A stretch of DNA of 34,271 bases from Bacteroidales bacterium (GTDB lineage: Bacteria > Bacteroidota > Bacteroidia > Bacteroidales > ML635J-15): the NCBI GenBank assembly GCA_028686735.1, contig JAQUBO010000018.1:1-34271 (forward strand), written 5' to 3'. The translations under genes and the position numbers were made by a program. Within the stretch, counting starts at the first letter, position 1. Every line of letters starts with the position of its first letter. The notes beneath the pieces are model-generated. The model was not told the DNA's origin and did no database searches. It worked only from the letters and a program-made list of their open reading frames with translations. Below are positions 214-15,295 of this stretch, one piece after another.

Positions 214-240
214 GGTTAATTGACAATATGGATTACAAAT

Positions 241-840
241 TTAGGATTGGGAAAATATACGCTCATGAAAATAGTACTGTCAGGGCTAAAGCCCATTTAA
301 CTGTAGCTCCTATTTTACCCCGCCCTAAAAGACGGGGTTATAGGGCTATATTGTCACGAGATAGGAAGGACATCTAGTATCTACAGGCTCAAGATTAACC
401 CCTTCATTGTTAAGGTGGTAGCAAGAAAAGTGCTTGTCAAAGAGTCATTAACCCCGTCCTTTAGGATTGGGAAAATATACGCTCATAAATGAAAATAGTA
501 CTGTCAGGGCTAAAGCCCATTTAACTGTAGCTCCTATTTTACCCCGCCCTAAAGGACGGGGTTATAAGGCTATATTGTCACGAGATAGGAAGGACATCTA
601 GCATCTACCGGCTCAAGATTAACCCCTTCATTATTAAGGTGGTAGCAAGAAAAGTGCTTGTCAAAGAGTCATTAACCCCGTCCTTTAGATAGGAAGGATA
701 TCTAGCATCTACAGGGTCAAGATTAACCCCTTCATTATTAAGGTGGTAGCAAGAAAAGTGCTTGTCAAAGAGTCATTAACCCCGTCCTTTAGGGCGGGGT
801 AGTAAGAATGTGAGATATACGGGCTTTAGCCCTGACAAGT
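241..840. repeat. Cluster of tandem/duplicated palindromic intergenic repeats (~220-bp unit, ~2.5 copies) bounded by inverted ends
   Basis: Unit 1 at 241-460 is repeated at 461-686 (starts ttaggattgggaaaatatacgctcat). A partial third copy, 687-790, duplicates 583-686. tgtcagggctaaagccc at 278-294 and 502-518 is exactly inverted as gggctttagccctgaca at 821-837. accccgccctaaaggacggggtta at 541-564 is exactly inverted at 777-800. Confidence 0.85.
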
Positions 841-8697: not shown

Positions 8698-9882
8698 TCA
8701 ATGTGCTTTAAAGTTATAAAGTGGTTTTAATACATCAATTACATCTGCTGTGTCGGTTATTGCATTTTTAATTTCTGTGATTGATTTGTAAGCTTGTGGA
8801 GCTTCGTCAAGTGTAGTGTTGCCAATGCAAGAGCTATAGACATCTGCCATTGATTTTTTAAATTCTTTAATGTTTATTAATTGTTTGGCTTTTGTTCTAC
8901 TCATTAAACGACCAGCTCCGTGTGGTGCTGAATAATTCCAATCTGCATTGCCTTTTCCGATGCAAAGTAACGAACCATCACGCATGTTTATTGGAATTAA
9001 TAGTTTTTCTCCCTTTTCAGCCGAAACAGCACCTTTCCGTAAAATCATTCGCTTAAAATCAATATAATTGTGTATAGTTTCAAATCGCTCAACTTCTTGT
9101 AAATTAGCTTCTTTTAAAATAATATTAGCCATAGTTTCACGGTTTACACTTGCGAACTTTTGAACAATAGCCATATCATTTATGTAATCATCAAAATCCT
9201 GACCTGTTAAAAAAGCAAGTTCTCTATTGGGTATTGATCTCTGTAATTTTCTTAATTCTTTTTTAATGTCCTTTTCTCTGTTTTCGCTTCTTAGTCTTTC
9301 AATAAGCTCGTTTTTTTCTTCGTTAATTCCACTTGCCTTCATTATTGCTTTGTTTTGGTAATATTTGCATGTATCGCTGCCAAGTTTTCGACTTCCGGAA
9401 TGTATAATTAAGTAGATGCTACCATTTTCTTCGGATTTGCTTATCTCAATAAAATGATTGCCACCACCTAAAGAGCCTATTGATAAACTTGCACGTTGTA
9501 TGTCAACATGTTTTTTACATCGCAAATTCGAAAAATCAAATTCTTGCTTACTTCTTTTGTGTACTTTAAAGCCGCTTGGAATTTCTGTCTTAATAATCTC
9601 ATCAATTGTTTTAAAATCTATTTTTTCGTTTTTTAGTTTTACAGTAAGCATTCCACAGCCAATGTCAACGCCAACCAAATTTGGTGTTAGTTTGTCTGTA
9701 ATTGTCATTGTAGTGCCGATAGTACAGCCTTTGCCCGCATGTACATCTGGCATAATGCGAATTTTCTCGTTTTGATATGCTTCAAAATTAGCCAAGGTTT
9801 TTATTTGATTATACGCTTCTTGTTCTATAGTCTCAGCAAATATCAGTGTTTTAACTCTTATATTGTTTGTTATTGTTTTCAT
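8698..9882 (-). CDS. rtcB: RtcB-family RNA ligase
   Basis: RtcB motifs: MPDVHAGKGCTIGTTMTI, LVGVDIGCGM, SIGSLGGGNHFIEI, HSGSRKLG, KGAVSAEKGEKLLIPINMRDGSLLC, SAPHGAGRLMSR. Confidence 0.92.
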   Translation of the reverse strand: MKTITNNIRVKTLIFAETIEQEAYNQIKTLANFEAYQNEKIRIMPDVHAGKGCTIGTTMTITDKLTPNLVGVDIGCGMLTVKLKNEKIDFKTIDEIIKTEIPSGFKVHKRSKQEFDFSNLRCKKHVDIQRASLSIGSLGGGNHFIEISKSEENGSIYLIIHSGSRKLGSDTCKYYQNKAIMKASGINEEKNELIERLRSENREKDIKKELRKLQRSIPNRELAFLTGQDFDDYINDMAIVQKFASVNRETMANIILKEANLQEVERFETIHNYIDFKRMILRKGAVSAEKGEKLLIPINMRDGSLLCIGKGNADWNYSAPHGAGRLMSRTKAKQLINIKEFKKSMADVYSSCIGNTTLDEAPQAYKSITEIKNAITDTADVIDVLKPLYNFKAH

Positions 9883-9990
9883 ATTTAGACGTAAATTTAA
9901 TTATTCGTATTTTTTGGCGGTGTTTTTGACTCTCGCCTTGTTGTATTATATTCAAATATACAAAAATATTTGAAACTTGTTGGTTTTTGT

Positions 9991-10195
9991 CAGTCGCATC
10001 CTGTAGCCTAAGTCGGGACGCGACTTAGGTAAGGTTGAGGGTTGTAAGTCGCATCCCGACTTAGGTAAGGTTGAGGTTTGTAAGTCGCATCCTGTAAGCC
10101 AGTCGGGACGCGACTTAGGCAAGGTTGAGGTTTGTAAGTCGCATCCCGACTTAGGTAAGGTTGAGGGTTGTAAGTCGCATCCCGACTTAGGCAAG
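9991..10195. repeat. REP-like hairpin array with a 90-bp period (alternating 54-bp and 36-bp units)
   Basis: 54-bp units at 9991-10044 and 10081-10134; 36-bp units at 10045-10080 and 10135-10170; partial unit 10171-10195. Short units carry aagtcg-catcc-cgactt. The first long unit carries GTAG (10003-10006) followed by a perfect 9-bp stem cctaagtcg (10007-10015) / cgacttagg (10021-10029) with a 5-nt loop. Confidence 0.9.
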
Positions 10196-10573
10196 CCCGC
10201 ATTAGTCCAAAAAAACCTTAACAAGGATATTGGTATTATGCTAGCCTCTTATACACGAGCAATCAATATTCAAAAAGGTTTTACAGGATCGTTATTTCGT
10301 AAAAGAACAAAAGCAATATGTATTAATTGTCCTGATGGTTTAAGTCCTTCTTTTCATGATACAGAATTTGGTACAATGTTTTACAATAGTCAATATTTTG
10401 AACAATATCCACAGGTTTGTTTTAATTATATACACCAAAATCCTGTGAAAGCTAGACTTGTGCAAAAAGCGATTGATTGGGAGTTTTCTTCGGCGAGAGA
10501 TTATGCAGGGTTGAGAAAAGATACACTTGTTAATAAATCAACTGCAGGCGAGTATCTCGATACCTGTATTTAA
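10196..10573 (+). pseudogene. REP-associated tyrosine transposase (RAYT, Y1/HUH family), N-terminally truncated
   Basis: Frame reads GKPALVQKNLNKDIGIMLASYTRAINIQKGFTGSLFRKRTKA...YPQVCFNYIHQNPVKARLVQKAIDWEFSSARDYAGLR, the RAYT C-terminal signature. The N-terminal HUH motif is absent. The first Met is at 10238, but homologous-looking sequence continues upstream to the repeat edge. Confidence 0.8.
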
Positions 10574-10604
10574 TTTTAGGTAGTTTACTGCTAATATTAA
10601 GGAT

Positions 10605-11377: not shown

Positions 11378-12622
11378 TTGAATCTTGAGTTATTCATAGC
11401 AAAGCGTTTAGTTAGTAAACGACATTCAAAGGGTAGTTTTAGCCGTCCAATTGTTACTGTTGCTATTGTTGGTATTGCTATTGGTTTGGCTGTGATGATT
11501 CTTTCGGTGGCTATTGTAACTGGTTTTAAAAATGAGGTTTCTGAAAAGGTTATTGGGTTCGGAGCTCATTTGCAAATCGTTAATTATGATAATAACTCAT
11601 CTTACGAAACATTACCAATTACACAAAATCAAACTTGGCTGGGAGATTTAACTCAAGTAGAAGGAATTCGTTCAGTAAATAAATTTATTGTAAAGGCAGG
11701 TATTATTAAAACTGATGAATATCTTCATGGAGCCGTTTTTAAAGGTATTGATTATGATTACGATTGGAGTTTTTTTAAACAATATCTTGTTGAGGGGGAC
11801 ACCTTAAGCATTGATGATTCTATAAAGTCGGGTAATATTGTAGTCTCAGAATTTATTGCGAAAGCTTTGAAAATTCAGTTGGGAGATGACATAGGTGCAT
11901 ATTTTATTCAAGACCCACCACGAATGAGAAAGTTTACTGTTTGCGGAATATATAACACTCAACTTGCCGATCTTGATAAACTTTTTGTGCTTGTTGATAT
12001 TAAGCATTTACGCAAACTTAATAATTGGGAAGATGACCAAATAACTGGATTTGAAATTCAAGTGGATGATTTTTCTAATCTTATTGATTATGAAATAAAA
12101 GTTAATAAATTGGTAGGTTATGACTTTAGTCCCGATGGCAATGTTTTGAAGGTTCGAAGTATTAAAGAGGAGTATCCTGGTATTTTTGATTGGCTTTCGC
12201 TACTGGATGTTAATGTTTGGATAATTTTATTCTTGATGCTGGCGGTTGCCGGATTTAATATGGTATCAGGATTATTGGTGATTATTTTGGAACGGGTAAA
12301 TATGATTGGAGTTATGAAGAGTATGGGAGCTCGCAATATTCAAATTGAGAAAGTTTTTATTTATTTTGCTGGTTTCTTGATTAGTCGCGGATTATTATTT
12401 GGTAATATTATTGGAATAGGATTATGCCTTATTCAGATGTTTACTGGAGTTGTTACTTTGGATCCGGAGTCGTATTATCTGTCACAGGTACCTATAAATT
12501 TTAATATTTGGCATATTCTTATTTTAAATGTTGGGACAATGCTAAGTACTATTATTATAATGGTGTTACCTTCAAAGATAATATCAAAAATAAATCCGGT
12601 AGATTCTATGAGATTTAATTAA
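11378..12622 (+). CDS. ABC transporter permease, FtsX/LolC-LolE family
   Basis: 414 aa: LELFIAKRLVSKRHSKGSFSRPIVTVAIVGIAIGLAVMILSVAIVTGFKNEV and a C-terminal FtsX-like domain (VMKSMGARNIQIEKVFIY). The start appears to be TTG at 11378. Confidence 0.9.
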   Translation: MNLELFIAKRLVSKRHSKGSFSRPIVTVAIVGIAIGLAVMILSVAIVTGFKNEVSEKVIGFGAHLQIVNYDNNSSYETLPITQNQTWLGDLTQVEGIRSVNKFIVKAGIIKTDEYLHGAVFKGIDYDYDWSFFKQYLVEGDTLSIDDSIKSGNIVVSEFIAKALKIQLGDDIGAYFIQDPPRMRKFTVCGIYNTQLADLDKLFVLVDIKHLRKLNNWEDDQITGFEIQVDDFSNLIDYEIKVNKLVGYDFSPDGNVLKVRSIKEEYPGIFDWLSLLDVNVWIILFLMLAVAGFNMVSGLLVIILERVNMIGVMKSMGARNIQIEKVFIYFAGFLISRGLLFGNIIGIGLCLIQMFTGVVTLDPESYYLSQVPINFNIWHILILNVGTMLSTIIIMVLPSKIISKINPVDSMRFN

Positions 12623-14122: not shown

Positions 14123-15295
14123 TTACTTTCTAATTTCTTTAAAAGCCCTTTCGATTAGTTCTGATATTTCGGTTTGTAGCGTTTTAGTGTCTTTATTACC
14201 GTCGAATGAAAATAGTTTATTTTGTTGTTTGTAGAAGTTGTAAATTTTCTCACTTTTCTCTTCAAAGACTTCTAGACGGCGAATAATTGTATCGGTATCC
14301 ATGTCGTATGAGCGGGCTTTAGAAGTGTTCGACCTTGCTGTAAGACGTTTTATGGATTGCAAGGTAGATGTTTTAACTTCTATCACTACAGAAACAGAAG
14401 TATCTAGTTTTCTTAATAATCCTCCTAGTATATATGCTTGCACAAGGGTCGAAGGGAATCCTTTAAAAATAAATCCTTTAATGTTTTTGTGTTCGGCAAT
14501 TTTTCTTTCAATAAGTCTAATAGCAATGTCATCGGGGACAATGTCTCCAGTTTTAAGATATGGTTCGGCAATTTTCCCTAATTCGGTTTGGTTTGAGACC
14601 TCTTCACGTATCATTTCACCAGTAGAAACATATACCATGTTAAATTTTTCTGCTAAATGTCTAGCTTGCGTGCCTTTTCCTGCTCCAGGAGGTCCAAAAA
14701 ACACGACATTTAATAAAGTTTGAGATAATATTTCTTCAATTTTATCTGTAAGCCTTTCAAAAATTATATCAACAGCACCTACTCCGTTAACGGGATAATA
14801 TTTTTGTTGATCTTTGTAAAAGTCAATTACTGGCACTGTTTTGTTTTCGTACTCACGTAATCTATTTTCAATGATTTCTTTTTTGTCGTCAGATCTGTTT
14901 TCTTTTTGAGCTCTTAACATCATCCGTCCTATAAGTTCTTTACGCGGAACTTCTAAGCTGAGCAGACATGATAGTTTAGTATTCATTTTTATGAGTAAGC
15001 CATCTATAATATATGCTTGTGCATAAGTACGTGGAAACCCGTCAAATAAAATACCGTTACTATCAGTATGCATATTAATGCTATTTTCAATAATTTGTAC
15101 AATAGTCTCGTCGCAAACAAGTCCTCCTTGCTCAATTACTGTTTTTGCTTGTAAGCCAAGTGGAGTGCCTTCTGCTATTTCTTTTCTTAGTATATCTCCA
15201 GTAGAAATGTAAGTGAGATTATATTTTTCGGCAAGCTTTTTTGCTTGTGTTCCTTTTCCTGCTCCTGGGGGGCCAAATAATGCAATATTTAACAT
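14123..15295 (-). CDS. adk: Tandem-fused adenylate kinase (two ADK domains)
   Basis: GPPGAGKGTQ P-loop occurs twice (NIALFGPPGAGKGTQAKKLAEKYNLTYISTGDILR and NVVFFGPPGAGKGTQARHLAEKFNMVYVSTGEMIR). Domain 1 has FDGFPRT; domain 2 has FKGFPST. Confidence 0.93.
   Translation of the reverse strand: MLNIALFGPPGAGKGTQAKKLAEKYNLTYISTGDILRKEIAEGTPLGLQAKTVIEQGGLVCDETIVQIIENSINMHTDSNGILFDGFPRTYAQAYIIDGLLIKMNTKLSCLLSLEVPRKELIGRMMLRAQKENRSDDKKEIIENRLREYENKTVPVIDFYKDQQKYYPVNGVGAVDIIFERLTDKIEEILSQTLLNVVFFGPPGAGKGTQARHLAEKFNMVYVSTGEMIREEVSNQTELGKIAEPYLKTGDIVPDDIAIRLIERKIAEHKNIKGFIFKGFPSTLVQAYILGGLLRKLDTSVSVVIEVKTSTLQSIKRLTARSNTSKARSYDMDTDTIIRRLEVFEEKSEKIYNFYKQQNKLFSFDGNKDTKTLQTEISELIERAFKEIRK

What the first reader, a model, noticed from the sequence alone, without database searches (positions are those of the whole stretch)
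9991..10573. REP-like hairpin array running in frame into a headless RAYT transposase
Seen: a 90-bp higher-order repeat (54+36 bp, all multiples of 3) abuts the C-terminal two-thirds of a RAYT. The first long unit contains GTAG followed by a perfect 9-bp hairpin (CCTAAGTCG-GGACG-CGACTTAGG), the arrangement established for REP substrates of RAYTs. The plus-strand frame stays open from 10007 through the repeats into the RAYT (…KSHPDLGKVEGCKSHPDLGKPALVQKNLNKDIGIMLASY…), with no ATG until 10238. The HUH-bearing N-terminus is gone while the SYTRAIN segment, which probably carries the catalytic Tyr, remains. Inference: array expansion or recombination replaced the transposase 5' end with its own cognate hairpins. 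Either this is a self-inactivated RAYT, or the repeats have been recruited as coding sequence.
Basis: partly seen in the sequence, partly recalled or inferred. Interest (0 to 1): 0.72.

Follow-up and report, generated by a model that had tools for sequence, protein, structure and literature searches.

The report
Transposase beheaded between its own hairpins
A bacterial RAYT enzyme gene (RAYTs are thought to spread small DNA hairpins called REPs) has lost its front half, most likely because matching hairpins lay both in front of the gene and inside its coding sequence and the DNA between them dropped out; in-gene REPs are already described, but this way of breaking the gene is not in the papers I found.

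Summary
A REP-like array (about 9990-10191) runs in one open frame from 10007 into the C-terminal part of a RAYT (10211-10573). No ATG, GTG or TTG occurs in frame before 10238, and the HuH half is absent here and from the own assembly. A syntenic relative (L026; same rtcB and FtsX-like neighbours) keeps the intact RAYT with a homologous array already inside its coding sequence, read in the same frame, in a disordered linker between HuH and helix alphaC. Related arrays also lie 5' and 3' of it. The repeats were therefore not newly recruited as coding sequence; the likely event is loss of the DNA between the 5' flanking array and the in-gene array. In-frame REPs inside tnpAREP genes are already published (Quentin 2018, subclass 2.4). 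Added here: 28 of 31 linker palindromes in a mostly order-wide sample share one phase, with strong two-sided covariation; three other relatives are broken at or near such palindromes. The catalytic Tyr is in FNYIHQNP, not SYTRAIN. The fragment keeps 35 of 36 conserved positions, so the loss is recent or the fragment is still constrained. An assembly collapse between repeats is not excluded.

The parts
8698..9882 (-). rtcB-like gene, 5' neighbour that anchors synteny (my name for it; 91.6% aa identity to L026)
9990..10006 (+). first, partial right-arm-like repeat (TCAGTCGCATCCTGTAG); ends in GTAG whose TAG is the in-frame stop; probably derived from the 5' flanking array
   Evidence: origin inferred from L026 alignment
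10007..10065 (+). full REP-like hairpin: left arm 10007-10025, 21-nt spacer 10026-10046, right arm 10047-10065
10062..10098 (+). half unit (spacer plus variant right arm AGTCGCATCCTGTAAG)
10099..10155 (+). second full hairpin: left arm 10099-10115 (17 nt), spacer, right arm 10137-10155
10152..10191 (+). second half unit (spacer 10152-10172, right arm 10173-10191)
10007..10573 (+). open frame (188 codons plus stop) through the array into the RAYT C-terminus; no ATG/GTG/TTG before 10238
10211..10570 (+). RAYT C-terminal part (alphaC helix SYTRAIN to C-terminus), 80% aa identity to intact L026; 35 of 36 family-conserved positions kept
10427..10429 (+). codon of the presumed catalytic Tyr (FNYIHQNP), aligned with Y115 of E. 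coli TnpAREP
11378..12622 (+). FtsX-like permease gene, 3' neighbour that anchors synteny (my name for it; 94% aa identity to L026)

Best explanation
This is a decayed RAYT (TnpAREP-type HuH/Y1 transposase) locus. Its ancestor was a full-length gene flanked by REP-like hairpins and carrying more of the same hairpin in frame inside its own coding sequence, in the floppy linker between the HuH strand and helix alphaC. The DNA between the 5' flanking array and the in-gene array (start codon, N-terminal sheet, HuH motif) was lost by exchange or replication slippage between the repeats. That fused the 5' flank to the linker array and left the catalytic-Tyr half in frame but without a start codon. 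Shown: array, open frame, absent head, intact syntenic gene with homologous in-gene and flanking arrays, same phase. Inferred: the exchange step and its exact junction (the repeats are interchangeable), loss of function, and that REPs are the substrate of the RAYT.
For: L026 is syntenic (rtcB 91.6%, FtsX-like 94%). It has an intact RAYT with array units at about 1568-1770 (5'), 2131-2254 (in gene) and 2633-2770 (3'). Window and L026 align up to the start of the 5' array and again from the 3' end of the linker array, with nothing of the about 0.5 kb between them in the window (blast segments 9701-10064 to 1262-1624 and 10210-10574 to 2268-2632). Left arm, spacer and right arm have the same codon phase in the window frame and in the intact L026 linker (0/1/1). 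The linker is disordered in the AlphaFold model (pLDDT < 50 for 67-91, 94-99, 101-107; core mostly > 90), whose best PDB match is TnpAREP 4er8. Family-wide linker palindromes with 5' and/or 3' copies. Other broken relatives at or near such palindromes: L239/L187 (second headless, REP upstream in frame), L221 (HuH segment missing, resumes at palindrome), L091 (alphaC segment missing from just after the linker palindrome). No head elsewhere in the assembly.
Against: The junction cannot be placed to the base. Window and L026 are diverged (C-terminal part dN 0.109, dS about 1.2), and the ancestor of the window had its own variant of the repeat, so the event is reconstructed from one syntenic relative. 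dS differs among neighbours (rtcB 0.29, FtsX-like 0.73), so strict vertical descent of the RAYT is not proved. L239 breaks beyond the linker, inside alphaC, so not every case fits a clean repeat-to-repeat loss.
Confidence: 0.74

Rival explanations
1. Assembly artefact: the gene is intact, and the assembler jumped from the 5' array to the near-identical in-gene array, dropping the head.
For: Fragmented assembly (404 contigs). Repeats of 82 nt at 96% identity. Related RAYT loci show contig breaks or N runs at or near the arrays (L026 contig begins inside a second RAYT copy; L093/L186 linker read as N). The fragment looks fully constrained.
Against: No orphan head contig of this family in the assembly (best E 0.02, to other RAYTs), though a piece under 1 kb could have been discarded. 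Other broken cases occur in other assemblies. The 1-2 nt differences between the two long units suggest they are not a simple collapse.
Confidence: 0.14
2. The headless ORF is a functional, domesticated C-terminal protein (for example a dominant-negative subunit or REP-binding regulator) translated through the array or from ATG 10238.
For: Frame open over 188 codons. 35 of 36 family-conserved positions intact, including the catalytic Tyr. dN/dS about 0.09 against L026.
Against: No ATG, GTG or TTG before 10238, and that start lies just before the alphaC motif SYTRAIN. The HuH metal site is gone. Constraint between window and L026 may mostly reflect the time before truncation. No relative found shares the same truncated form.
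Confidence: 0.05
3. The array or a RAYT-mobilised REP inserted next to or into the gene, and the head was lost by an unrelated deletion.
For: REPs are thought to be RAYT substrates (PMC8266576, PMC6006769). L239 breaks beyond the linker.
Against: The intact relative already has the array at the exact point where the window's RAYT resumes, in the same phase, and the 5' flank stops aligning at the point where its 5' array begins.
Confidence: 0.07

Closest known systems
TnpAREP/RAYT subclass 2.4 with REPs inside tnpAREP (Quentin et al. 2018, PMC6006769)
   Same: REP sequences flank the gene and are also inserted in frame between HuH and Y motifs, in a variable, peripheral linker; abundant in Bacteroidetes and Cyanobacteria.
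   Different: This family reads YIHQNP, not YIxNNP, and has a conserved SS after the core; the paper calls in-gene REPs unique to 2.4. Head loss at the in-gene REP was not found in the passages of the paper searched or read.
TnpAREP subclass 2.6 / Bertels group 5
   Same: Bacteroidetes, YIH[QN]NP motif, SS motif, flanked by atypical hairpins.
   Different: Here the HuH is NHFH rather than NH[LIV]H, and hairpins also lie inside the gene, which the paper does not report for 2.6.
E. coli TnpAREP (PDB 4er8) and its GTAG-tagged REPs
   Same: Best solved structure by sequence and by fold; catalytic Y115/N119 align with the retained FNYIHQNP.
   Different: Head absent here; GTAG foot present in only one of two long units; hairpin architecture different.
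REPs found inside unrelated genes (PMC3733652)
   Same: Palindromes translated as part of ORFs; TAG of the GTAG tag used as a stop codon.
   Different: Here the host gene is the RAYT itself and the array is followed by a truncated protein.

Membership tests
RAYT / TnpAREP (class 2 Y1 HuH) | HuH motif | tested here: not met
   Absent from the window fragment and from the own assembly for this family; present (NHFH) in the intact syntenic relative L026. The fragment is filed as a remnant, not as a complete RAYT.
RAYT / TnpAREP (class 2 Y1 HuH) | Single catalytic Tyr in a Y motif | tested here: met
   FNYIHQNP aligned to 4er8 Y115/N119; Y115F is the catalytic mutant in PMC8266576.
RAYT / TnpAREP (class 2 Y1 HuH) | Association with palindromic repeats dispersed in the genome | tested here: met
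   17 exact hits of the arm pattern, 0 in the control; flank sharing across the family.
RAYT / TnpAREP (class 2 Y1 HuH) | Cleaves or transfers cognate single-stranded REP | not testable with these tools
   Needs biochemistry.
Subclass 2.4 (Quentin 2018) | REPs inserted in frame between HuH and Y | tested here: met
   L026 and 31 of 43 ORFs in a mostly order-wide sample; 28 in one phase.
Subclass 2.4 (Quentin 2018) | Y motif YIxNNP | tested here: not met
   YIHQNP in all 37 aligned relatives and the window; a minority in the wider order sample read YIHNNP.
Subclass 2.4 (Quentin 2018) | W motif WQ | tested here: inconclusive
   The aligned position appears to be F of GSLF[RQK] (LF invariant); position matched by inference only.
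Subclass 2.6 (Quentin 2018) | YIH[QN]NP and SS motifs | tested here: met
   Both invariant in the family alignment.
Subclass 2.6 (Quentin 2018) | HuH motif NH[LIV]H | tested here: not met
   NHFH in nearly all relatives.
Double-foot GT[AG]G REP | GT[AG]G at the hairpin foot | tested here: inconclusive
   GTAG at one of two long units; GTAA at the other; feet of family palindromes mostly A[GC]T.

The most novel reading that the evidence does not exclude
In a large Bacteroidota RAYT group that does not fit a published subclass cleanly, an in-frame 33-nt palindrome in the transposase's own linker is maintained as DNA structure (arms change on both sides, nearly always one codon phase) and shares its sequence with REPs at the gene's ends in many loci. 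Each such gene then carries a built-in weak point: exchange with the flanking 5' REP removes the HuH half, or with the 3' REP the Tyr half. The window is a caught example.
Probability: 0.45. Interest if true: 0.6.

Novelty: new variant of a known kind. Interest (0 to 1): 0.42.

Why it matters
Why domesticated transposases carry their own substrate-like hairpins inside their coding sequence is open. The covarying, phase-locked linker palindromes make it testable whether they are kept for a reason (self-binding, autoregulation, target choice) or merely tolerated in a disordered loop. The headless locus shows the cost: the same repeats give the gene a ready route to inactivation, which may help explain genomes that hold REPs without a matching RAYT.

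Tried and rejected
Pfam gave no match to the fragment. Plasmid records hold no relative. The four other PF01797 hits of the own genome were examined as possible intact sources of the head. The ORFs recovered at C363, C270 and C379 belong to other RAYT types, the C250 hit was not typed further, and none yields this family's N-terminus. The idea that repeats were newly recruited as coding sequence was rejected on the intact relative. A GTAG-tagged canonical REP as the defining unit was not supported across the family. A first regex pass over the order-wide loci failed through a typing error and was redone. The flank-sharing analysis counts some paralogues and 5' in-frame REPs as 'elsewhere', so its 22 of 58 should be read as a lower bound of linker-flank sharing. 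The palindromes were chosen for being palindromic, so their 97% pairing is partly by construction; the independent supports are the two-sided changes, the single phase, and the in-ORF controls.

Full report
1. The observation. The array and frame are as described. Tandem repeats of 36 and 90 bp occupy 9986-10195, with copies at 36/90/36 spacing and 96% identity over 82 nt. The + frame is open from 10007 to the stop at 10571-10573, without ATG, GTG or TTG before 10238. The single strand folds far better than shuffles (z -7.8). Read as parts, the array is a left arm (CCTAAGTCGGGACGCGACT), a 21-nt spacer and a right arm (AGTCGCATCCCGACTTAGG); the '54+36' unit is a full hairpin followed by a half one. 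GTAG stands before the first full unit only, and its TAG is the in-frame stop.

2. The protein. The downstream part is a RAYT C-terminus (below the curated cut-off because it is partial). By alignment to E. coli TnpAREP (4er8) the catalytic Tyr lies in FNYIHQNP (codon 10427-10429), not in SYTRAIN. Y115 is the catalytic residue there (PMC8266576). SYTRAIN belongs to the long helix after the linker, which I equate with alphaC. The fragment retains 35 of 36 positions conserved in at least 90% of 37 relatives.

3. The intact relative. L026 (JAQVOR010000064, same genus as the window's genome, G014) has the same neighbours, rtcB (91.6%) and an FtsX-like permease (94%), and an intact RAYT. Array units of a related repeat lie 5' of it, 3' of it, and inside it, between LMPNHFH and LNKNIGIMLASYTRAIN. 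The repeat cores differ by two of 18 bases (AGTCGCAtCCCGAcTTAG and AGTCGCAcCCCGAaTTAG). Left arm, spacer and right arm have the same codon phase in the window's open frame as in the coding linker of L026. The window aligns with L026 up to the start of the 5' array and again from the 3' end of the linker array. The simplest history is loss of everything between the two arrays. The head of this family is found nowhere in the own assembly.

4. The family. Of 43 RAYT ORFs with recognisable HuH and alphaC from the fetched set (mostly an order-wide sample), 31 carry a 33-nt palindrome (at least 12 of 15 pairs) in the linker; 28 are in the same codon phase, three in another. Five ORF frames had such a palindrome elsewhere, some before the start codon. 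In an overlapping set, 34 palindromes show 149 two-sided changes against 42.5 expected from shuffles, covariation 0.775 against 0.198, and 0.14 or less when slid. They were selected as palindromes, so percentage pairing alone is not evidence. In many loci copies of the same palindrome lie just before the gene, just after it, or both (20 of 35; 15 of 31). In Alkaliflexus imshenetskii (L066) the palindrome occurs eight times: once in the gene, six times in an array beside it, once far away. The linker of L026 is predicted disordered, and the model's best solved match is TnpAREP.

5. Other broken members. L239/L187 (another genus of the family) is a second headless RAYT with REP units directly upstream in frame, though its break lies inside alphaC. 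L221 lacks the HuH segment and resumes at the linker palindrome. L091 lacks the alphaC segment between linker palindrome and EKQYPQ. These make repeat-associated breakage a recurrent outcome, from a small number of cases.

6. What is known. Quentin et al. 2018 (PMC6006769) state that in subclass 2.4 REPs lie inside the tnpAREP gene, in frame, between HuH and Y, and call this unique to 2.4. So in-gene REPs are not new. The present group shares that feature but reads YIHQNP and has the SS motif, as in 2.6, and NHFH, which 2.6 lacks in the published consensus. Its place is unresolved without their reference sequences. Head loss between flanking and in-gene REPs was not found in the papers searched, which are only open-licence ones.

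7. Weighing. An assembly collapse is the main rival: the assembly is fragmented and the repeats are near-identical. A functional headless protein is unlikely, since no start codon precedes alphaC and the metal site is gone. Low dN/dS against L026 (0.109/1.23) says that the protein was constrained for most of the time since the two split; it does not show that the fragment is constrained now.

8. Verdict. An ordinary kind of decay in an unusual kind of gene. The single locus is of modest interest; the family pattern it exposes, a phase-locked and covarying coding hairpin in the transposase's own linker, is the more interesting part and is partly published.

Noticed in passing
L026:1-160 and L026:1915-2628 (G014:C203): A second RAYT copy (last 52 codons, 2 nt differences over 156 nt) lies on the other side of rtcB, cut by the contig end: the RAYT with its arrays is duplicated around rtcB in this relative.
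   Followed up: partly
own genome C237, C335, C184 (two), C41 (loci L003-L007): The REP hairpin sits inside a larger conserved element of about 250-300 bp with similar flanks at five places, MITE-like in appearance.
   Followed up: partly
L216 and L195: The same palindrome (ACCGAGGGCTTCGCTCAAAGCGAAACCCTCGGT) is read in different codon phases in the linkers of two RAYTs, which points to conservation of the DNA and not of the peptide.
   Followed up: no
alignment A4, palindrome columns 9 and 25: One pair of the family palindrome is often T-G or C-A instead of a Watson-Crick pair (16 of 34), recalling the stem irregularities that E. coli TnpAREP needs.
   Followed up: no
window 240-792: Two further tandem repeats (periods 224 and 104, about two copies each) in the window, not examined for any link to the RAYT.
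   Followed up: no
window 14123-15295: An ORF on the minus strand reads as two fused adenylate-kinase-like halves (two GPPGAGKGTQA motifs).
   Followed up: no
L093/L186: The linker of this RAYT is a run of N in the public assembly; such arrays seem hard to assemble (or the stretch is masked).
   Followed up: no
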